Source: a virus. From it: DNA of 64,000 nt. Each line of letters opens with the position of its first letter. Positions within the stretch are counted from its first letter, which is position 1. The notes beneath the pieces were generated by a model. It ran no database searches, had not been told where the DNA came from, and was given only the letters and a program-made list of their open reading frames with translations. Shown here piece by piece: positions 46,638-63,044 of the stretch. The position numbers and the translations under genes are program-made. The stretch spans positions 124,001-188,000 of IMG/VR virus record IMGVR_UViG_3300007513_000001. The stretch is one strand, 5' to 3'.

Positions 46638-47477
46638 ATGCCGAAGCATAATAAAAAAAGAAATGTTGGAATTATCTATGAACAACTACTTTCTTCTCTA
46701 TCACGCGCTTTAGTAGAGGGCAAAAATGGAGAAGTTAAAATAGTAAAAGGAATCATTGATAAACACTTCAAGCCTGGAACAGAGCTCTATAAAGAGTTTA
46801 GGCTTTTTCAAGCTATGGTTAAAACAAAGGTGCCTCGAGAGTCTTTAGCTATTAAAATATTAGGAGAGGCAAAAACAGCTTCTGTTAATAGAAATGCAAA
46901 AAAACTCCAAAGAGAAAAATCTATGTTGATAAAAGACATAAATTACAAAATGGGCAATTCTAATTTTTATAACCAGAGAGTCCAAGAATATAAAGAATAC
47001 GCAACCGTTCAAAATCTTTTAAACTTGTGGGAAAAAGGTGAGGCGGGATCGCTACAAGAAGCCATCAGATATGAATCTTTAGTGCAGGACATGCTTCTAA
47101 GAGAAGAAGACCAGCATAATTTCGAAGATGAAAAAACTGAAGATGTAAATAAGCTAACTGTGAAAATAATGTTAGAAAAATTTAATAAAAAATATGATTC
47201 TAGCTTAAATCAAATGCAAACAAAAATAATTAAAGAATACGTTTTTTGTTCTGGAGAAAATTCTTTAAAGAGTTTATTAAACGAAGTAAAAATTGCTGCC
47301 ATGCACGAAATATCCCAAGTTCCAAATTCGCATAGCAATAAGGTCATTTGTGAAAAAGTTAACAAAGTTAAAAATAACATTTCTAGATTAGACGAAAATA
47401 TTCATGATGACGAAAATATTTCTAGATTCTTGTTGCTTTCTAAACTTTCAGAAGAACTTAAGGAGGATTCAGTATGA
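46638..47477 (+). CDS. 279-aa unknown protein between portal and protease
   Basis: I choose the ATG at 46638, preceded by GAAGGA inside the end of the portal gene; an in-frame ATG at 46626 is also possible. The protein is helical and highly charged, starting MPKHNKKRNVGIIYEQLLS and containing basic helices (NAKKLQREKSMLIKD) and later acidic ones. The position between gp20 and gp21 genes matches where T4 places small prohead core proteins (gp67, gp68). An internal core or assembly role is plausible, but the similarity is of place only. Its end overlaps the protease start by four bases (ATGA). Confidence 0.72.
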   Translation: MPKHNKKRNVGIIYEQLLSSLSRALVEGKNGEVKIVKGIIDKHFKPGTELYKEFRLFQAMVKTKVPRESLAIKILGEAKTASVNRNAKKLQREKSMLIKDINYKMGNSNFYNQRVQEYKEYATVQNLLNLWEKGEAGSLQEAIRYESLVQDMLLREEDQHNFEDEKTEDVNKLTVKIMLEKFNKKYDSSLNQMQTKIIKEYVFCSGENSLKSLLNEVKIAAMHEISQVPNSHSNKVICEKVNKVKNNISRLDENIHDDENISRFLLLSKLSEELKEDSV

Positions 47478-48085
47478 GCGATTCTAAATTACATTTGCTC
47501 ACGAGTTGGACTCCGTTTGAATATACTGTAGATCAAATTAAAGAATCTAGAGAAAATAACGGCGGAAAAATTTTAATGCGAGGCGTACTTCAAAAGTCTG
47601 ATACGCTTAATCAAAACGGCAGAGTCTATCCTCGCGTTATCTTAGATAGAGAAGTTAGAAACTATCAAAAATTCATAGCAGAAAATCGAGCGCTTGGAGA
47701 GTGCGATCATCCCGACTCTTCAGTTGTCGAACTTAAAAACGTGTCTCACATAGTAAGAGAAGCTTATATGGACGGAGATATATGCTATGGAACTGTAGAG
47801 CTTTTAGATACTCCAGCTGGAAAAATACTCCAGAGTTTAGTCGAATCTGGAGTGACTTTAGGTATATCATCTCGAGGAGTTGGATCTACTAAAAATGAGG
47901 GAGATCACCAAGTAGTTCAAGACGATTTTCAATTAATTTGCTGGGATTTCGTTAGTGAGCCTTCGACTCCAGGAGCTTTTATGATGCGTGAAGGTGTAGA
48001 AGTTAGAAGGTCTGATTTAAATAAGCATTTTAATAAAACAGATAGAATTGATAGAATATTTAACGATATTTTAGATTGGGAGTAA
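47474..48085 (+). CDS. Prohead maturation protease (T4 gp21-like)
   Basis: This 203-residue serine protease of the herpes/T4 type cleaves scaffold and capsid proteins inside the prohead. The catalytic His79 lies in GECDHPDSS and the catalytic Ser (132 or 133) in LGISSRGVGS; NQNGRVYPR near 46-54 is a family motif. The length matches T4 gp21 (212 aa). An AGGAGG lies just before the ATGA overlap with its upstream neighbour. T4 gp21 cuts after Glu in Leu/Ile-x-Glu, and such a site (LRE before Ala) occurs at residue 61 of both capsid proteins here. Confidence 0.93.
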   Translation: MSDSKLHLLTSWTPFEYTVDQIKESRENNGGKILMRGVLQKSDTLNQNGRVYPRVILDREVRNYQKFIAENRALGECDHPDSSVVELKNVSHIVREAYMDGDICYGTVELLDTPAGKILQSLVESGVTLGISSRGVGSTKNEGDHQVVQDDFQLICWDFVSEPSTPGAFMMREGVEVRRSDLNKHFNKTDRIDRIFNDILDWE

Positions 48086-50555: not shown

Positions 50556-52244
50556 ATGAGCAAAAATCTTTATAACGAAGCCATCGCAGAAGCAAAACAA
50601 CTGCGTGACATGGCTGAACAAAACGCAAAAAATAAAATTATTGAAGCCGTTACTCCTAGAATCAGAAGTCTTATTGAACAGCAGCTTATTGATGATGTTG
50701 AAGAAGAATCAGATTTAGTAATAGGGGATGAAGCAGAAGAATCTGCAGAAGAAATGGTAGATTTAGCAATTGAAGAATTGCCAATGGCTGCGCCGGCAGA
50801 AGAGCCACCCCCCGCTGCTCCCACTGTATCGATTACTGTTCAGGGTGATCTAGATATGGATCTTGGCGAGGGTGATGATGACGAAGAAGAAGATCTTATT
50901 TTAAGTCAAGAGTCTTTTTTGCGTTTAGAGAATTTTTTGCATAATGTGTCAAAAACAAAGAATATTTCTGGCCGTGTTGTTTCTTTATCTAGAAAATTCA
51001 ACATGCTAAGAGAAGCGATTGATGGAGTAAATCTTAATAGATGTAGCTCTGTTGAAAAACAAACAGCGATTATATTTTATGGTCGTCTGTTAGAAGAAGT
51101 TATTACTTTATCTAATAATTTAATACTTATGAAAGAGTCCATTGACAATAGACTCGAATTACAATTAACTCAACTAATAAAGGAGATGAGCAAAATGTCT
51201 AGAAGACGTGACGCAGCAGCTTTCAGGAGACTCTTTGAAGAGTTAACAAAGGATGAGAGTCTTGAGGAAGTGGGCATGTTTGAACAAGAAGAAGAAGAAG
51301 TTGACCTCGATGTAGATGTCGAGGAAGACGTAGAAGTCGCAGCTGAACCCGATGTGGAAGCAGCTGAAGACGCAATATTAGATCTTGGGGCCGCACTCGG
51401 TCTCGACGTTGAAGTCGCACCAGCCGAAGAAGAGGTTGAAGTCGAGGAAGATGTCGAAGAAGAAGAAGAAATTACTTTAGAAAGTGATGATTCTGACGAC
51501 GGGGACGGAGAAGATCTTGACGAAGTTTACGAAATTGATGAAGCTGCGCTACGTCGTGAGCTCTTTAAAATGAGAAGACTTCGTGAGCAAGAAGAGGGAA
51601 GAGCTGCCGCAGCCGATCCTGCACTTGCACATGGTGGAGAAGATGAAGGTGACGTTATTGTCGATGTCGACGAAGACGCTCTTCTTAACGCTCTCGCTGA
51701 TGAACTAGGTGATCCTGGAGTTCCTGCACCGCAGGTTGAAGCTTTTATTCGCCGTAGACTCCGCAGAGCAAGCCGCCAGTTAGCTGAATCACAGCGACGT
51801 AATCGTAGAACTCGTGGAACTCGTAGAAACAGAAGAATTTCAGAGTCACGTCGCACCAGAAGAGCTGCTCCAGCCCGTAACACTAAAAGAGCCGTCATGG
51901 CTGAAAGAACTGTTACTAAATTAAAGAAGCAGCTTGCAGAAATGAATCTTTTTAACGCTAAGCTTCTGTTTGCTAATAAGCTCATGCAAAATCGTGGGCT
52001 TTCAACAAAGCAGCAGCGTGTAGTAGTCGAAGCACTCGACAAAGCACGCACAATCAGAGAAGCCAAACTCCTTTATAAGAGTTTGAGTGCATCTCTAAAT
52101 CGGGGTTCCGGTAAGACTCTATCTGAGAGTCGCTCCCGATTGCTCGCATCTTCATCCAAATCAACCCGGTCAGGCGCGCCTGCCAGCAATGGGAATGAGG
52201 TAGATCGTTGGGCTTTACTCGCCGGGTTAACGTCAGACAAATAG
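50556..52244 (+). CDS. Prohead core scaffold (T4 gp22-like), enlarged
   Basis: This 562-residue protein lies between the protease cluster and the capsid genes, as gp22 does in T4. The N-terminal 60 residues are helical and the next part strongly acidic. A conserved-looking helix region (LENFLHNVSKTKNISGRVVS) precedes a very acidic coiled section. The C-terminus reads KLLFANKLMQNRGLSTKQQ then ALDKARTIREAKLLYKSL, the gp22-type ending. Residues about 395-447 are extremely Arg-rich, which is unusual. T4 gp22 is 269 aa, so this one is about twice as long. It should form the inner core on which the capsid assembles and be degraded by the protease. Confidence 0.85.
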   Translation: MSKNLYNEAIAEAKQLRDMAEQNAKNKIIEAVTPRIRSLIEQQLIDDVEEESDLVIGDEAEESAEEMVDLAIEELPMAAPAEEPPPAAPTVSITVQGDLDMDLGEGDDDEEEDLILSQESFLRLENFLHNVSKTKNISGRVVSLSRKFNMLREAIDGVNLNRCSSVEKQTAIIFYGRLLEEVITLSNNLILMKESIDNRLELQLTQLIKEMSKMSRRRDAAAFRRLFEELTKDESLEEVGMFEQEEEEVDLDVDVEEDVEVAAEPDVEAAEDAILDLGAALGLDVEVAPAEEEVEVEEDVEEEEEITLESDDSDDGDGEDLDEVYEIDEAALRRELFKMRRLREQEEGRAAAADPALAHGGEDEGDVIVDVDEDALLNALADELGDPGVPAPQVEAFIRRRLRRASRQLAESQRRNRRTRGTRRNRRISESRRTRRAAPARNTKRAVMAERTVTKLKKQLAEMNLFNAKLLFANKLMQNRGLSTKQQRVVVEALDKARTIREAKLLYKSLSASLNRGSGKTLSESRSRLLASSSKSTRSGAPASNGNEVDRWALLAGLTSDK

Positions 52245-52268: not shown

Positions 52269-54167
52269 ATGTCTAAGAAATTTACACTGAATCAGTTAAC
52301 CGAGGGTATTCGTCAACGTAATGTTGGAACGGGTAACAGAAGGTTAATTGAAAAGTGGTCCCGCACTGGTCTCCTTAGAGGCCTTGAGGGCACCACTCGC
52401 GAAAATATGGCTACGCTGCTTGAAAATCAGGCATCACAGGTCTTACGCGAGGCTAACTCAATTTCCACCGGTGGTGGAAACTTAACTAGTTCTGGAGACC
52501 TCCGCGGTTTTCAAAACATTGCATTCCCAATCGTTCGTAGAGTTTTCGGCGGCCTGGTTGCTAATGAGCTTGTATCTGTACAGCCCATGAGCCTTCCATC
52601 TGGCCTCCTTTTCTATCTTGATTACACCTACGGAACCAACGTTGGTGGTCGCGACGACTCAGGTATCGATGCATCTTACCCATCTGGAAGTTCAATTTAC
52701 AATTCTCCAGTCGGTAAAGGCATACGTTCTGGTTCTCTTGGAATCGGCGGTCAGTATAATCTTGCTGGCTCTGGTTATTCAAGAGTACATAAGATTGCTT
52801 CGAGCGTAACGCTCCTTGCATCTGGCGCCTATATGGGGAATACAACATTCTCAGCTGACGCTATCGATGAAGTAAGACGTATGGTCGCTACTGGTTCTGA
52901 TGGCAAGCTTCTACAGTTCGATGAGCAGATTTGTAGAATTATTGAAGATAACCCCAACGATGCAGGCCTCGGCGTATTCAAGGCTTACTTTGTTGACTTT
53001 AGTTCAGGCAAGTTTAGTAATGCAGACGCCACTATGGTAAAAGACTTTGCTCTTATACCACCTGATGGCACTGCGCCGACTATTCTTTCACCAACCTTGA
53101 AATCTCAGGATATTCAAGCAAGTGGCGATAGAGTGCTTAATGTTCGTAGGCTTAATCAGCTTGGTAAGTGGGATGGAACTTCGTTCACCGCAGATCCGCT
53201 AGTTAGAGCTGGTGATGCTAACGCAGCTATTCTAATGATCGTTTCTGGTACTAAGGGCAGCACGGCCGAGCAGACTTATAGCGTTGACTATGTTCTCAGC
53301 CCAAGTCTTGATGCAGGGTCAGATGGTGATGCTCTTACTATTCCAACCTTTGAGTCTAACTTCGCTACTTCGCCTTCACCAGAGATCCCAGAGATCGACA
53401 TTAAGGTAGAGTCAATCGCAGTTACTGCAGTAACCCGTAAGCTCCGCGCTCGCTGGTCACCAGAACTCGCACAGGACTTGAATGCTTATCACAGTCTTGA
53501 CGCTGAAGTTGAGCTTACTCAGATCCTTTCCGAGCAGATTGCTCTTGAGCTTGATAGAGAGATCCTTAATGATCTACTCACTCAGGCTAAGACGAACTTC
53601 TACTGGTCACGTTCACCAGGCAAGTTCATGAACAAGAGAAATGGTAACCTTGTCACTCCTGGTGGAGCTGGTTCTATTGGTCCAAGCTTCACAGGCACCG
53701 TCCGCGAATGGTATGAGACTCTGGTCGAGACCATTATTGATGTTGCTAATGAGATCCACAGACTTACTCTAAGAGGATCAGCTAACTTCATCGTAGTGTC
53801 ACCCGACATCGCGACTATTCTTGAAGCGTCTGTTCTTTACCGTCCAAGCTACAGCTTAGATGGTGATGGCCAGGTTGGTACTCCAATGAGCATTGGTGCA
53901 GAGAAGATGGGAACCCTTAGTAACCGTTTCACGGTATACAAAGATCCTTACTTCCCACGCAACAAAGTTCTCGTAGGATTCAAGGGCGGAAGCTATCTTG
54001 AGACCGGTTATGTATACGCTCCATACGTACCACTTATTGTCACTCCAACAATCTTCGCTCCAGAGGACTTCACCCCACGTAAGGGTGTTATGACTCGCTA
54101 TGGTAAGAAGATGGTTCGTTCTGACTTCTATGGTACTGTTACAGTTGCAGATCTTAACGTAATCTAA
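52269..54167 (+). CDS. Major capsid protein, copy 1 (T4 gp23-like)
   Basis: A 632-residue HK97-fold capsid protein of the gp23 type. The family core is seen in ESIAVTAVTRKLRARWSPEL, the AQDLNAYHSLDAEVELTQIL helix and LELDREILNDLL, and the C-terminal KKMVRSDFYGTVTVADLNVI. A probable protease site follows Glu61 (LRE before Ala62), as in T4 gp23 near residue 65, so the mature protein would begin at Ala62. AAAGGAG lies before the ATG. Codons favour C-ending and GGT/CGT types, fitting very high expression. A second copy follows after 93 bases, with near-identical ends and a diverged middle (residues about 124-350). Confidence 0.95.
   Translation: MSKKFTLNQLTEGIRQRNVGTGNRRLIEKWSRTGLLRGLEGTTRENMATLLENQASQVLREANSISTGGGNLTSSGDLRGFQNIAFPIVRRVFGGLVANELVSVQPMSLPSGLLFYLDYTYGTNVGGRDDSGIDASYPSGSSIYNSPVGKGIRSGSLGIGGQYNLAGSGYSRVHKIASSVTLLASGAYMGNTTFSADAIDEVRRMVATGSDGKLLQFDEQICRIIEDNPNDAGLGVFKAYFVDFSSGKFSNADATMVKDFALIPPDGTAPTILSPTLKSQDIQASGDRVLNVRRLNQLGKWDGTSFTADPLVRAGDANAAILMIVSGTKGSTAEQTYSVDYVLSPSLDAGSDGDALTIPTFESNFATSPSPEIPEIDIKVESIAVTAVTRKLRARWSPELAQDLNAYHSLDAEVELTQILSEQIALELDREILNDLLTQAKTNFYWSRSPGKFMNKRNGNLVTPGGAGSIGPSFTGTVREWYETLVETIIDVANEIHRLTLRGSANFIVVSPDIATILEASVLYRPSYSLDGDGQVGTPMSIGAEKMGTLSNRFTVYKDPYFPRNKVLVGFKGGSYLETGYVYAPYVPLIVTPTIFAPEDFTPRKGVMTRYGKKMVRSDFYGTVTVADLNVI
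52323..52378 (+). repeat. 56-base block identical to 54315-54370 in capsid copy 2
   Basis: This run is base-for-base identical in the two capsid genes while the codons on both sides differ synonymously. A second such block, 44 bases, is at 53565-53608 and 55548-55591. Two more identical blocks lie nearer the 3' ends of the genes. Confidence 0.9.
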
Positions 54168-54260
54168 TAATGTTTGATTAATCGAATGGCGGCGTCCTGC
54201 GCATAGCGTCGGGGCGCCGTCTCAGATTAAAAAGCATCCATTTAAAAGGAATAAAACAAA
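54167..54260 (+). promoter_or_regulatory. Intergenic hairpin between the two capsid genes
   Basis: GGCGGCGTCC (54188-54197) pairs with GGGCGCCGTC (54212-54221) as a ten-pair stem with two wobble pairs and a 14-base loop. No T-tract follows, so it is not a classical terminator. It may slow or protect transcripts and set the ratio of the two capsid proteins. AAAGGAATAAAAC precedes the second ATG; no promoter motif was seen here. Confidence 0.6.
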
Positions 54261-56150
54261 ATGTCAAAAAAATTTACACTGAATCAGTTAACTGAAGGTA
54301 TTCGCCAACGCAACGTTGGAACGGGTAACAGAAGGTTAATTGAAAAGTGGTCCCGCACTGGTCTCCTTAGGGGATTGGAAGGTACCACTCGCGAAAATAT
54401 GGCGACCTTACTTGAAAACCAAGCATCGCAAGTACTTCGTGAAGCCAACTCAATTTCCACCGGTGGTGGAAACTTAACTTCGTCTGGAGATCTTCGTGGT
54501 TTTCAGAATATCGCATTTCCAATTGTTCGCAGAGTTTTCGGCGGACTAGTTGCTAATGAATTAGTGTCAGTTCAGCCAATGAGCCTTCCGTCTGGATTGC
54601 TTTTTTATCTAGACTACACATATGGAACCTCTGTAGGTGGCCAGTCTGATGGTGATTCTGCTACGTACCCTTCAGGAAGCTCTATTTATAATGCTCCTAC
54701 GGGTAAAGGCGTACGTTCTGGTTCTCTTGGAATCGGTGGCCAGTACAATCTTGCTGGCTCTGGTTATTCAAGAGTCCACCAGTTAGCTAACACTATTACT
54801 CTACTTGCTTCTGGAGCATACCAGGGAACTACTACGTTCTCGGGCGGTGGCACTAGCTATAAACGCATGACCGCTACCGGTTCTGATGGTAAGCTTCTCC
54901 AGTTTGACGAACAGATTTGTAGGCTGATCGAAGATCATCCAAACAGCGAAGGCTTAGGCGTTTTCACTGCTGTTTTTGTAGACCTGAACTCTACTCAGTT
55001 TAGTAATGGTGATCTTTCAATGGTTAAGGATTTCGCTCTTATACCATCGGCATCCGCTATTAACTTTGCAGGTCCCTCGCAGACTCTTAAAGATCAAGAC
55101 GTTCAAATTTCAGGAAACAAGGTTATTAACGTTAGACGACTTAACCAGATTGGTAAATGGGATGGAACTTCATTCACTCACGATCCGTTAACTAAGGCGG
55201 GTGATTCAAACGCTGCAATATTGATGATTATCTCAGGTACAGATTCTTTCTCTGAGGGAATGGATATTGATTATATTTTATCACCAAGCTTAAATGTCGG
55301 CAGTGATGGAGACGCGCTAACGATTCCAACCTTTGAGTCTAACTTCGGTACTACACCTTCACCAGAGATTCCAGAGATTGATATTAAAGTTGAATCTATT
55401 GCGGTTACTGCAGTTACTAGAAAGCTCCGCGCTCGCTGGTCACCAGAGCTTGCTCAAGATCTTAACGCGTATCACTCTTTAGACGCAGAAGTTGAGCTTA
55501 CTCAGATCCTTTCTGAACAAATTGCTCTTGAGTTGGATCGTGAAATTCTTAATGATCTACTCACTCAGGCTAAGACGAACTTCTACTGGTCGCGCTCACC
55601 AGGTAAGTTCATGAACAAGCGGAGTGGCGCTCTAGTTACTCCAGGCGGAGCAGGGAACATTGGTCCAAGCTTCACCGGTACAGTTCGTGAATGGTATGAG
55701 ACTCTAGTTGAGACCATTATTGATGTTGCTAATGAGATTCATAGGCTTACATTACGCGGATCAGCTAACTTCATCGTAGTTTCTCCAGATATTGCAACTA
55801 TCCTCGAAGCTTCAGTTCTGTATAGACCTACTTATAGCTTGGACGGAGACGGCCAAGTCGGAACTCCAATGAGTATTGGAGCCGAACAGGTTGGAACCCT
55901 TAGTAACCGTTTCACGGTATACAAAGATCCTTACTTCCCAAGAAATAAGGTTCTCGTAGGATTCAAGGGCGGAAGCTATCTTGAGACCGGTTATGTATAC
56001 GCACCTTATGTGCCTCTAATCGTTACTCCAACAATCTTCGCTCCAGAGGACTTCACGCCGCGTAAGGGCGTTATGACTCGCTATGGCAAGAAGATGGTTA
56101 GAAGCGATTTTTATGGTACTGTTACGGTTGCAGATCTTAACGTAATCTGA
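54261..56150 (+). CDS. Major capsid protein, copy 2 (T4 gp23-like)
   Basis: A 629-residue paralogue of the preceding gene. The first 123 residues are essentially the same protein and the last 275 or so differ at only a few sites, such as GAEQVGT here against GAEKMGT in copy 1. The middle third differs by many substitutions and small indels, in the region that in gp23 corresponds to the surface insertion and peripheral loops. The same LRE/Ala cleavage site is kept at 59-62. T4 itself has a diverged vertex paralogue (gp24), but these two are far closer to each other. A strong terminator follows at 56171. Confidence 0.94.
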   Translation: MSKKFTLNQLTEGIRQRNVGTGNRRLIEKWSRTGLLRGLEGTTRENMATLLENQASQVLREANSISTGGGNLTSSGDLRGFQNIAFPIVRRVFGGLVANELVSVQPMSLPSGLLFYLDYTYGTSVGGQSDGDSATYPSGSSIYNAPTGKGVRSGSLGIGGQYNLAGSGYSRVHQLANTITLLASGAYQGTTTFSGGGTSYKRMTATGSDGKLLQFDEQICRLIEDHPNSEGLGVFTAVFVDLNSTQFSNGDLSMVKDFALIPSASAINFAGPSQTLKDQDVQISGNKVINVRRLNQIGKWDGTSFTHDPLTKAGDSNAAILMIISGTDSFSEGMDIDYILSPSLNVGSDGDALTIPTFESNFGTTPSPEIPEIDIKVESIAVTAVTRKLRARWSPELAQDLNAYHSLDAEVELTQILSEQIALELDREILNDLLTQAKTNFYWSRSPGKFMNKRSGALVTPGGAGNIGPSFTGTVREWYETLVETIIDVANEIHRLTLRGSANFIVVSPDIATILEASVLYRPTYSLDGDGQVGTPMSIGAEQVGTLSNRFTVYKDPYFPRNKVLVGFKGGSYLETGYVYAPYVPLIVTPTIFAPEDFTPRKGVMTRYGKKMVRSDFYGTVTVADLNVI

Positions 56151-56170: not shown

Positions 56171-56205
56171 GGGGCGGCACTTAATGTGCCGCCCCTTTTG
56201 TTTTT
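56171..56205 (+). terminator. Strong intrinsic terminator after capsid genes
   Basis: GGGGCGGCAC (56171-56180) pairs perfectly with GTGCCGCCCC (56186-56195) around the loop TTAAT. TTTTGTTTTT follows. This ends the scaffold and capsid transcription unit. Confidence 0.97.
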
Positions 56206-59879: not shown

Positions 59880-62800
59880 ATGGCTGAACAGACCTTCCGT
59901 TCTCCAGGGTTTTTTGAACAAGAGATAGATCTTTCACAGAGAGAGAAAGCTCCTGTAGGTACTCCTGCGGGTATTATTGGAACCTCACAAAAGGGTCCAG
60001 CTTTCGTACCTGTGATTGTCGGTTCTTTTGCAGATTTCGAAACGCGATTTGGTACATTAGATTCAAACCGTTTTGGTCCCTATGCAGTTAGAGAATACTT
60101 AAAAAACAAAGATGCAATAACTTATCTAAGAGTACTTGGTGCAGGATCTAACGACACCAGTTCTGAAATAAGCAACACACAAAATTATGGAATCGTTTCC
60201 AAAGCTGGATTCGTTGTTTCCGGGTCTCGGGTAGTTGGCTCTACCGGAGCGGGCAGTGGAGATCAGCGACATCGCGGATGCGTGCAGTTCTTATGCGCTC
60301 GCCACTACCTTTCAGCTTCTGAAGGCTCAGTTGGATATCCAATTTTCGACGATAACGATTCCTTTCCGGGGCTGTCTTCTGTTAGTACCCGTGGAACTAT
60401 CAACGTTATCAACTTAGTTCGTGGAATGATAATTCCAGCATCAGGAACTAGAGTTATGTTAGCTAATTGGGATGAATCTATTGGGGGGTCTTCATATTCG
60501 CCTCCAACTGAAGATATTGCTACTAGAAACGATAATCCAACCGCTGAAGCTTATAATACTTTTAAAATTATTATTTCTTCTTCGGCAGGTACAGGTTTTG
60601 CAAATGATGATGCTGTAGCTGGCTTTAGAATTTATTCAGCCTCTTTAGATCCGAATAATGACAATTATATTTCTAAAGTCTTAAATACAGATCCGTGGAA
60701 GTTTGGAGAAGAGCAACATATCTTATGGGCTGATTTCCCTGTAGAAAATGAATTGGCTCCAGTATCCGAGGGCGCAGGCGCCATTGGGATTCTTTCCGGT
60801 ACAAACGCTACAAATGGGATTGGATTAAGCGAGAATTGGAGAGATTCTTTCGGTAGATTTGATACTAGATACACGGCACCACGAACACCATCTCTTATAT
60901 CACAGCCTTTCGGTGGCACAGAATATGATCTGTTCCACTTTGAGTCTCTTTCTGATGGTTCCTATGCAAACTCGAAGCATAAGGTCTCTATTGCCAATCT
61001 CCGGGCTTCTACAGACGAAAATTACCCATATGGTACTTTCGAAGTTCAGCTAAGAAAATTTGATGATAACGACCTTTCAAAAGAAGTGATTGAGGTTTAT
61101 CCAGAGTGTACTCTTGATCCTAAGAGTGATAGATTTATTGGACTTCAGATTGGTGATAAAAAAGTATTTTATGATTTTGACTCTGAAGATCCAGAAGAGC
61201 GTAGACTAGTAGTCGAAGGGAAATATCCTAATCGCTCTCCAAATATTAGAGTGGTAGTTAATAACGCTGTATATAACGGAGAAGTTCCGAAAGCTTCCTT
61301 GCCTTTCGGTTTCCGCGGTATTCCAGTACTTAAAACCACTGATACATTTACTGATATTCCAAGCAGTACAATTACTGGCTGGGAAGGAGGCTGGGGTTCG
61401 ACCGGCACAAGGGTTTGCGGAGTTTTGAACCGGGACACAGCTTCTGGACTTTCTGGTTCTATTTTACCTCCACTACCATATAGATTTAAGTGCACAAGAG
61501 GTCAAGTGGATTCATCTCCGGCATTTGCTGGTGATCCAGGCAAAAACGAGAGAGCAGATTCAAGACTTTATTGGGGAACAATGCCCACGCGTTTACCTCT
61601 CACAGCTTCAGTAACTCACGCTACTTATGATGCTAATATCGGAAGCTTAACCAACAACTTGGTTAAGGGATATACAACATTCCAGGGGATTGTGAAACTA
61701 GACAACTTAGTTACTGGCTCTGGTGCAGATGCGTTTAATAATAACAAGTTTACTCTTGCTAGAGTAGCTCTTTATAACACTGAGACAAACTTGAGCAAAA
61801 TTACTGGCTCTGCCAATGAGCACATGCTCGATGCTGCGTATATTAGAAACGGAATTTATAGTTCTACTGATTATACACTTAGTGATGGCGTCAGGTCTGG
61901 AAGACTTACTTTGGCGACTTTAATAAATTCTAGTTCTATTAAGTTTAACCGGTTCCAAGATTACGCGAAGTTTACTCTTCCGTTCTATGGCGGTTTTGAT
62001 GGACTAAACGTTTTAAATAAAGCTAACGCGCTTATGAATGATAGAGCAGCCTCTACAGATCCAAAAGGTCTTGCTGGGGATGATCCACCGGGCGGTGGAC
62101 TCGGTCTTGGCGGAACAGCTGGAAACGGATCAATGTCTGGGCTGGGACGCCAAAACAACGTAGTTTTCTCTTACAGAAAAGCTGTAGAGATTATGACTGA
62201 TCCAATGATAGTCAACACTAATCTTCTTGCGGTACCAGGCATAAGAGATCCATTCATTACTGATCTTGCTGCTGATAGAACTAGAGATTATTCAATGGCT
62301 ATGTATGTTATGGACATTCAGCAGTACGACGAAGATGAAAATAGACTGTTTGATTCTGACACTGCGAAGCGAGATGTAAGAGAAACTGCCGAGCAGTTTG
62401 AAGGCCGTAGAGTTAATAACAACTATGCTGCGACTTACTTCCCCGACGTATATATCGATGACCCAGTTAATAATAAGAGTGTTTTAGTTCCTTCATCTGT
62501 AGTTGCTATGGGGGCTTTGGGTTATAACGACACTGTAGCATATCCTTGGTTCGCGCCTGCTGGATTTAACCGCGGATCATTAGACAACGTTAGAAATACT
62601 GCGGTGAGATTAACTGCTGGAGATAGAGATGAGCTATATGATGCTAGAGTTAATCCTATAGCTAATTTTCCAAATGGCGGATTCGTCATCTTCGGCCAAA
62701 AGACCCTGCAGATCAACAAGAGTGCGCTTGACAGGGTAAACGTTCGAAGAATGTTACTTGAAGTCAAGAGATTAGTGGTTCAAGTAGCAGATAGACTGTT

Positions 62801-63044
62801 ATTCGAACCAAACACACCGGCAACAAGATCGAGATTTATTTCTCAAGTTGCACCAATTTTAGCACTAGTTCAATCACAGGCAGGTATAGAGAAGTTTTCT
62901 GTGGTCATGGACGACACAAACAATTCGCCACAAGATGTAGAGCAAAATAAACTGAATGGTAGAATAGTGGTTGTTCCCACTCGTTCTGTTGAATTCATTG
63001 CTATTGACTTTATTATCACAAATAGTGGCGTATTGTTCATGTAA
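59880..63044 (+). CDS. Tail sheath protein, copy 1 (T4 gp18-like)
   Basis: A 1054-residue contractile sheath subunit. The N-terminus has the sheath signature TFRSPGFFEQEIDLS, then PAGIIGTSQKGPAFVPV and a D-F-x-x-x-F-G pattern. The C-terminus has RVNVRRMLLEVKRLVVQVAD and ends in IVVVPTRSVEFIAIDFIITN, the strands that interlock subunits. It is longer than T4 gp18 (659 aa), with the extra residues in the middle, in surface-exposed domains. A GAGGAG site precedes the ATG. A second sheath gene begins 41 bases after the stop. Confidence 0.93.
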   Translation: MAEQTFRSPGFFEQEIDLSQREKAPVGTPAGIIGTSQKGPAFVPVIVGSFADFETRFGTLDSNRFGPYAVREYLKNKDAITYLRVLGAGSNDTSSEISNTQNYGIVSKAGFVVSGSRVVGSTGAGSGDQRHRGCVQFLCARHYLSASEGSVGYPIFDDNDSFPGLSSVSTRGTINVINLVRGMIIPASGTRVMLANWDESIGGSSYSPPTEDIATRNDNPTAEAYNTFKIIISSSAGTGFANDDAVAGFRIYSASLDPNNDNYISKVLNTDPWKFGEEQHILWADFPVENELAPVSEGAGAIGILSGTNATNGIGLSENWRDSFGRFDTRYTAPRTPSLISQPFGGTEYDLFHFESLSDGSYANSKHKVSIANLRASTDENYPYGTFEVQLRKFDDNDLSKEVIEVYPECTLDPKSDRFIGLQIGDKKVFYDFDSEDPEERRLVVEGKYPNRSPNIRVVVNNAVYNGEVPKASLPFGFRGIPVLKTTDTFTDIPSSTITGWEGGWGSTGTRVCGVLNRDTASGLSGSILPPLPYRFKCTRGQVDSSPAFAGDPGKNERADSRLYWGTMPTRLPLTASVTHATYDANIGSLTNNLVKGYTTFQGIVKLDNLVTGSGADAFNNNKFTLARVALYNTETNLSKITGSANEHMLDAAYIRNGIYSSTDYTLSDGVRSGRLTLATLINSSSIKFNRFQDYAKFTLPFYGGFDGLNVLNKANALMNDRAASTDPKGLAGDDPPGGGLGLGGTAGNGSMSGLGRQNNVVFSYRKAVEIMTDPMIVNTNLLAVPGIRDPFITDLAADRTRDYSMAMYVMDIQQYDEDENRLFDSDTAKRDVRETAEQFEGRRVNNNYAATYFPDVYIDDPVNNKSVLVPSSVVAMGALGYNDTVAYPWFAPAGFNRGSLDNVRNTAVRLTAGDRDELYDARVNPIANFPNGGFVIFGQKTLQINKSALDRVNVRRMLLEVKRLVVQVADRLLFEPNTPATRSRFISQVAPILALVQSQAGIEKFSVVMDDTNNSPQDVEQNKLNGRIVVVPTRSVEFIAIDFIITNSGVLFM

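What the first reader, a model, noticed from the sequence alone, without database searches (positions are those of the whole stretch)
52269..56150. Two tandem major capsid genes with a diverged central region
Two gp23-type genes encode nearly the same N- and C-terminal parts, but about 220 residues in the middle differ by many substitutions and indels. Both keep the cleavage site and full core. This looks like a capsid built from two alternate subunits or selection for variety on the outer surface, rather than the old gp23/gp24 split.
Basis: partly seen in the sequence, partly recalled or inferred. Interest (0 to 1): 0.65.

Follow-up and report, generated by a model that had tools for sequence, protein, structure and literature searches.

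The report
Phage with two coexisting capsid subunits
A large virus of bacteria carries two neighbouring genes for its main shell protein that share almost the same building frame but differ in the domain thought to face outward, and the pair is old and kept in related viruses, which suggests a shell made of two kinds of brick.

Summary
Two intact gp23-type major capsid genes lie in tandem (W1 52269-54167, W2 54261-56150). N part: 0 of 122 residues differ; C part: 6 of 260; middle: 73 of 246 plus 5 gap columns. The pair recurs in six same-species records (five distinct) and in two further species, X (242 kb contig, both copies complete) and Y. It is not a recent copy: flank dS is about 1. The middle domains form a copy-2 clade across species (support 100/100; grouping by phage rejected, AU p 0.00015 and 0.0012), whereas the flank proteins reject grouping by copy (p about 0.02) although N-flank DNA still groups by copy. 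So the pair predates the species split, the lattice frame stays matched within each phage, and the outer domains keep separate identities. Copy 1 is the ancestral form, copy 2 the derived one. However, the variable middle is ordinary for this family: single-copy relatives vary there too, so 'selection for variety' is not shown. Best reading: a two-subunit HK97 shell, probably mosaic; dosage and positional specialisation remain open. No gp24-like third gene was found in either long record.

The parts
52269..54167 (+). Copy 1 (W1): gp23-type major capsid protein, 632 aa; retains the ancestral form of the middle domain
   Evidence: L007 matches copy 1 at 9 of 10 copy-diagnostic columns and copy 2 at 0
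54261..56150 (+). Copy 2 (W2): gp23-type major capsid protein, 629 aa; derived form of the middle domain
   Evidence: copy-2 clade {W2,X2,Y2} 100/100
52635..53381 (+). Divergent middle of W1 (residues 123-371), inferred to lie in the E-loop/insertion-domain region
   Evidence: position between T4-matching parts; part of it modelled as a beta-rich domain
54627..55364 (+). Divergent middle of W2 (residues 123-368)
   Evidence: a slightly longer stretch modelled alone, mean pLDDT 77
52443..52451 (+). L59-R60-E61 of W1, candidate prohead-protease site (motif recalled)
   Evidence: L59 and E61 invariant in 76 of 76 rows
54435..54443 (+). L59-R60-E61 of W2, candidate prohead-protease site (motif recalled)
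54188..54221 (+). GC-rich hairpin between the copies, without a following T run; the 93-nt spacer folds at -37.4 kcal/mol, z -6.1
   Evidence: hairpins without a T run also lie between the copies in X and Y
56171..56205 (+). Terminator-like hairpin plus T run after copy 2
   Evidence: hairpin followed by a T-rich stretch also after copy 2 in X and Y
47474..48085 (+). Prohead core protease (Peptidase_S77, T4 gp21 type), same head module
   Evidence: (E 5e-24)
50556..52244 (+). 562-aa acidic and Arg/Lys-rich protein just upstream, candidate scaffold (gp22 position); function inferred from place and composition only
   Evidence: no Pfam or PHROG match

Best explanation
The phage builds its head from two major capsid subunits that share one HK97 lattice frame but carry two different outer (E-loop/insertion) domains. 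Shown: an old tandem duplication that predates the split of at least three species; both genes under strong purifying selection; the middle domains descend as two separate lineages, copy 1 keeping the ancestral form; the frame proteins stay matched within each phage; a hairpin without a T run separates the genes, while a terminator-like hairpin follows copy 2. Inferred: the genes are co-transcribed through the hairpin, the two products co-assemble in the same hexamers (mosaic shell), the frame is held alike because each subunit must fit both itself and its partner, and the two outer domains give the surface two interaction faces (for example for two decoration or receptor partners).
For: Tandem pair in three species. 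Middle: {W2,X2,Y2} 100/100, {W1,W2} rejected p 0.00015, {X1,X2} p 0.0012. Flank protein: copy grouping rejected p 0.0195 and 0.0185, while N-flank DNA groups by copy (96/95) and rejects phage grouping p 0.036 and 0.027. Informative flank residues 5 phage, 0 copy, 0 cross, against flank third positions 22 phage, 40 copy, 24 cross (Fisher p 0.0017 with sites treated as independent). At residue 24 X1 uses AGT and X2 TCT for Ser, and in codon 462 base 1 follows phage while base 3 follows copy: parallel amino-acid change without copying of DNA. Paralogue flanks have fewer protein changes than any of 2195 orthologue pairs with flank dS > 0.8. Precedent: a two-component encapsulin whose two HK97 shell proteins co-assemble into mixed shells (PMC12407261, passages).
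Against: No virion, expression or stoichiometry data. Only five informative flank residues; residue 629 looks like short gene conversion (the informative bases of codons 626-631 all carry the phage pattern). C-flank DNA does not resolve the two histories cleanly, and {W1,X1} is not recovered as a clade in the middle tree, though not rejected (p 0.17). The middle is variable in the whole family, so its divergence needs no special selection. The 2195 pairs are not independent. Only one other species has both copies complete.
Confidence: 0.5

Rival explanations
1. Positional specialisation: one copy is used at particular lattice sites (vertices, end caps or portal surround), a young analogue of gp24, while the other builds the bulk of the shell.
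For: No third gp23/gp24-like gene in the 293 kb and 242 kb records at E 0.1; T4 precedent, and T4 gp24 probably arose from gp23 (PMC9958956). Copy identity is kept across species.
Against: The four longer single-copy relatives searched also have just one such gene, so no separate vertex protein seems needed, though these are fragments. Some T4 gp24-bypass mutations lie in the A domain at subunit interfaces; here the frame is the part that hardly differs, and all 10 copy-diagnostic columns lie in the middle.
Confidence: 0.2
2. Dosage: the second gene simply raises capsid protein output for a large head; the middle drifted as it does in the whole family.
For: Middle divergence matches the family's ordinary variability; large records of 242 and 293 kb; genes in tandem.
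Against: A 257 kb record with a single copy exists. The two middle types persist as separate lineages across species instead of being homogenised.
Confidence: 0.2
3. Alternative use: the two subunits are expressed in different hosts or conditions, or one is a spare form used by recombination to switch the outer domain.
For: A hairpin separates the genes in all three species. Strain variants nearly always differ towards the other copy's base (23 of 24 differing bases in the five strain copies compared).
Against: The two multi-base tracts whose borders I checked lie between identical runs of 25-53 nt, so they may be assembler bubble collapse. None replaces the whole middle. The genes are direct, not inverted, repeats.
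Confidence: 0.1

Closest known systems
T4 gp23 / gp24 (major capsid and vertex proteins)
   Same: Both products are gp23-family HK97-fold proteins (PF07068; T4 gp23 is the best solved match) beside an S77 prohead protease; two paralogous shell proteins in one phage
   Different: The paralogues are about 87% identical, not ~20%; the shared part is the lattice frame and the differing part is the insert; no sign of a pentamer specialist
Two-component Family 2B encapsulins (Sl-Enc1/Sl-Enc2, PMC12407261, passages read)
   Same: Two HK97 shell genes with conserved order; most variation in an extra domain; Enc1 and Enc2 lineages largely separate across genomes
   Different: Cellular compartment with co-assembly shown by experiment; here a phage head with co-assembly inferred
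Single-copy relatives of this family (L007, L009, L102 and others, IMG/VR)
   Same: Same frame and same variable middle
   Different: Only one gene seen, followed by a hairpin, mostly with a T run, in the eight loci read by eye
Archaeal filamentous viruses with paralogous major capsid pairs (recalled; PMC7189273 seen only as a listing with the start of its abstract)
   Same: Two paralogous major capsid proteins in one virus
   Different: Unrelated fold and helical virion (recalled)

Membership tests
T4-type gp23 major capsid family (PF07068) | Sequence match over the curated cut-off | tested here: met
   253.0 and 254.2 bits against 24.4
T4-type gp23 major capsid family (PF07068) | HK97 core fold | tested here: met
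   W1 399-629 aligns to T4 gp23 270-521, Z 11.3, 161 residues, rmsd 5.4; the model is of low confidence overall (mean pLDDT 60.6)
T4-type gp23 major capsid family (PF07068) | Insertion domain in the E loop on the outer surface | tested here: inconclusive
   By sequence, W1 124-351 (about 226 residues) stands where gp23* has 69-160 (about 90); the modelled domain (mean pLDDT 77) found no confident PDB match
T4-type gp23 major capsid family (PF07068) | N-terminal propeptide cut by the prohead protease | tested here: inconclusive
   S77 protease gene present and L-x-E invariant; cleavage itself not tested
gp23/gp24 hexamer/pentamer split | Strongly diverged second paralogue adapted to vertices | tested here: not met
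   Paralogues 87% identical, flanks 6 differences in 382; no third PF07068 gene. Vertex use itself was not testable
Two-component HK97 shell (as in encapsulins) | Two shell genes with conserved order and separate lineages | tested here: met
   (two species with both copies complete, a third with copy 2 and the tail of copy 1)
Two-component HK97 shell (as in encapsulins) | Both products co-assemble in one shell | not testable with these tools
   Needs virion proteomics or cryo-EM

The most novel reading that the evidence does not exclude
A natural tailed-phage head built of mosaic capsomers from two interchangeable major capsid subunits, in which selection keeps the lattice frames of the two paralogues matched at the amino-acid level within each phage while their outer domains keep two separate, heritable identities.
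Probability: 0.45. Interest if true: 0.75.

Novelty: new variant of a known kind. Interest (0 to 1): 0.58.

Why it matters
Apart from T4, larger HK97-type shells are described as built from a single major subunit, with the two-component encapsulin reported as a new assembly mode (PMC12407261, passages). A phage lineage that keeps two nearly identical frames with different outer domains would be a natural case of a mixed phage shell, and would let one ask directly how paralogous subunits stay compatible in a lattice: the frames here change in step while the DNA behind them has diverged. It also gives three related species and many single-copy relatives as a ready comparison set.

Tried and rejected
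Recent duplication or assembly duplicate: rejected; flank dS is about 1, and the pair is in six other records of the species and in two other species.

Gene conversion as the cause of the identical flanks: whole-flank conversion rejected, because synonymous sites are far apart and N-flank DNA groups by copy. Short conversion is possible (codons 626-631). Strain variants L003, L005 and L006 differ from the window copies towards the other copy at 23 of 24 differing bases, which looked like conversion, but the L005 tract lies exactly between identical runs of 53 and 32 nt and the L003 copy-2 tract between runs of 25 and 29 nt, so assembler bubble collapse explains them equally well; I do not use them.

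'Divergent middle shows special selection': rejected as stated; single-copy orthologue pairs do the same, e.g. L038/L044 2 flank v 41 middle differences, L023/L042 8 v 53, L051/L062 10 v 60.

Fold of the middle domain: no confident match in PDB (best Foldseek E 0.48; best Z 3.6) and one borderline BFVD match without a name (UPI000018F68D, E 1e-3). The absence of a match is not evidence of a new fold.

Other tandem pairs: patterns covering spacers of roughly -40 to 200 nt found only species W and X, Y; 0 hits in the two other spacer ranges, 0 in genome contigs for the one range tried. The pattern needs exact matches to two motifs, so pairs with changed motifs would be missed. Tandem pairs among the 2498 named phage records with a match were not sought one by one; the 40 best rows each have one place.

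Papers: nine searches gave listings; beyond those I read passages in PMC7824862, PMC10343443, PMC10580926, PMC12407261 and PMC9958956 (of the last also section 2.1). I saw no report of a tandem gp23-type pair of this sort; one search was swamped by an unrelated meaning of 'MCP', and most subscription papers are not held, so this is weak evidence of absence.

Rows dropped: of the 80 loci, L004 (same alignment as L003), L012 and L063 (incomplete gene) were left out of the pair statistics; the window species was left out of the orthologue pairs (74 sequences, 2701 pairs). Pairs with undefined dS enter the amino-acid counts but not the dS-filtered count.
Full report
OBSERVATION. The window is part of a 293,409-base virus record. 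Two intact ORFs of 632 and 629 aa stand in tandem at 52269-54167 and 54261-56150; I call them W1 and W2. Both match the T4 gp23 family far above cut-off and PHROG 138. No other member was found in the record. The head module around them holds an S77 prohead protease at 47474-48085, a 562-aa protein of scaffold-like composition at 50556-52244 with no family match, and downstream a head-tail adaptor and a tail sheath.

DIVERGENCE PROFILE. W1 and W2 are identical at all 122 N-terminal residues, differ at 73 of 246 aligned middle residues (plus 5 gap columns) and at 6 of 260 C-terminal residues. The DNA is not identical: NG86 dS is about 1.04 (N), 1.01 (C) and 1.68 (middle). So the identity of the flanks is kept by selection on protein, not by recent copying. 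The middle is also the variable part in the whole family: mean column entropy 0.61 (N), 1.75 (middle), 0.41 (C) bits over 59 sequences, and W1/W2 differ at the family-variable columns (2.61 v 1.36 bits, p 1e-17). Single-copy orthologue pairs have the same contrast. What is unusual is how little the flanks differ: among 24 orthologue pairs with a similar middle divergence (0.25-0.35) none has flanks as similar as W1/W2 (minimum 3.4%, W1/W2 1.6%), and of 2195 orthologue pairs with flank dS above 0.8 none has so few flank changes. These pairs are not independent.

HOW OLD AND HOW WIDE. Of 80 loci found with W1, 4 belong to the window species; the 76 others show one capsid ORF each within the stretch held; of 74 complete single genes, 33 have at least 2 kb on both sides and so could have shown a neighbour. 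A scan of viral contigs for the tandem architecture found six records of the window species (two of the same length and the same alignment to the window) and two new species, X (241,978-base contig) and Y (5,267-base contig). X has both copies complete; Y has copy 2 complete and the last 28 residues of copy 1. Two other spacer ranges gave nothing.

TWO HISTORIES IN ONE GENE. In the middle, W1-X1 differ at 61/248, W2-X2 at 59/242 and W2-Y2 at 54/242, but W1-W2 at 71/243 and X1-X2 at 76/241. In the flanks the order is reversed: W1-W2 6/383 and X1-X2 6/383, against W1-X1 11/383 and W2-X2 14/383 (sums of the N and C counts). Trees with eight single-copy outgroups agree: middle protein, {W2,X2,Y2} 100/100 and phage grouping rejected (p 0.00015 for W, 0.0012 for X); {W1,X1} is not recovered but not rejected (p 0.17). 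Flank protein rejects copy grouping (p 0.0195 and 0.0185) and does not reject phage grouping. N-flank DNA again groups by copy ({W2,X2,Y2} 96/95; phage grouping rejected p 0.036 and 0.027). C-flank DNA is mixed: {X1,X2} rejected p 0.017, {W1,W2} p 0.071, copy grouping not rejected (p 0.13 and 0.38). Site counts over W1, W2, X1 and X2 tell the same: flank residues 5 phage, 0 copy, 0 cross; flank third positions 22, 40, 24; middle first and second positions 9, 34, 4; middle third positions 21, 15, 12 (Fisher p 0.0017 for flank residues against flank third positions). Of the five residues, 24 (Ser by AGT in X1, TCT in X2) and 462 (base 1 by phage, base 3 by copy) look like parallel change, 629 like short conversion, 8 and 449 are open. 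With so few sites this is suggestive, not proof; the groupings were tested after the distances had been seen.

POLARITY. At 10 columns, all in the middle, copy 1 and copy 2 are fixed for different states in W, X and Y (Y by copy 2 only); the nearest single-copy relative L007 has the copy-1 state at 9 and the copy-2 state at none. Copy 1 is thus taken as the ancestral form and copy 2 as the derived one.

REGULATION. Between the copies a GC-rich hairpin lies in all three species, without a T run, shortly before the start of copy 2; after copy 2 a hairpin with a T-rich tail follows. In eight single-copy loci read by eye the gene is followed by a hairpin, in most with a T run. I infer that the duplicated unit was gene plus terminator and that the inner one lost its T run, giving read-through with perhaps less copy 2; no expression data exist here.

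STRUCTURE. Sequence matches to T4 gp23 cover W1 80-124 and 351-612, so the divergent middle sits where T4 has its E-loop region; T4's insertion domain lies in that loop, makes bumps on the capsid surface and rests on the neighbouring subunit (PMC9958956 section 2.1). The W1 model is weak overall but W1 399-629 superposes on the T4 gp23 core, Z 11.3, rmsd 5.4 over 161 residues. The middle of W2 alone models as a beta-rich domain, mean pLDDT 77, without a confident PDB match. W1/W2 differences fall in predicted loops at 54 of 175 and in strands or helices at 20 of 85 residues. Outer-surface exposure is therefore inferred from T4, not shown.

INTERPRETATION. I favour a shell of two subunits with a shared frame and two outer domains, probably mixed in the same capsomers: a subunit that must fit both itself and its partner would explain why the frames change in step within a phage. 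Precedent for mixed HK97 shells exists in a two-component encapsulin (PMC12407261, passages), whose authors name T4 as another two-protomer HK97 assembly and state that no evidence of hetero-capsomers has been found there. Positional use, dosage and alternative expression remain possible (see rivals).

Noticed in passing
window 59880-63044: Tail sheath of 1054 aa; the best-scoring family stretch covers only residues 829-1053, so a very large extra N-terminal or inserted part is present.
   Followed up: no
window 50556-52244: 562-aa protein with long acidic tracts and an Arg-rich stretch, no family match, at the place of a scaffold protein.
   Followed up: no
L005 copy 1 codons 584-591; L003 copy 2 codons 159-162; L006 copy 2 codons 614-622: Strain variants carry short patches of the other copy's bases; either short gene conversion or collapse by the assembler.
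   Followed up: partly
L031 and L034 against L047: Single-copy relatives whose flanks differ at only 21-22 of 383 residues but whose middles differ at 106 of 249 with 18 gap columns, which hints at swapping of the middle domain between phages.
   Followed up: no
window 54168-54260, L098 6571-6634, L093 87-146: The hairpin between the copies is kept in position but hardly in sequence across the three species.
   Followed up: partly
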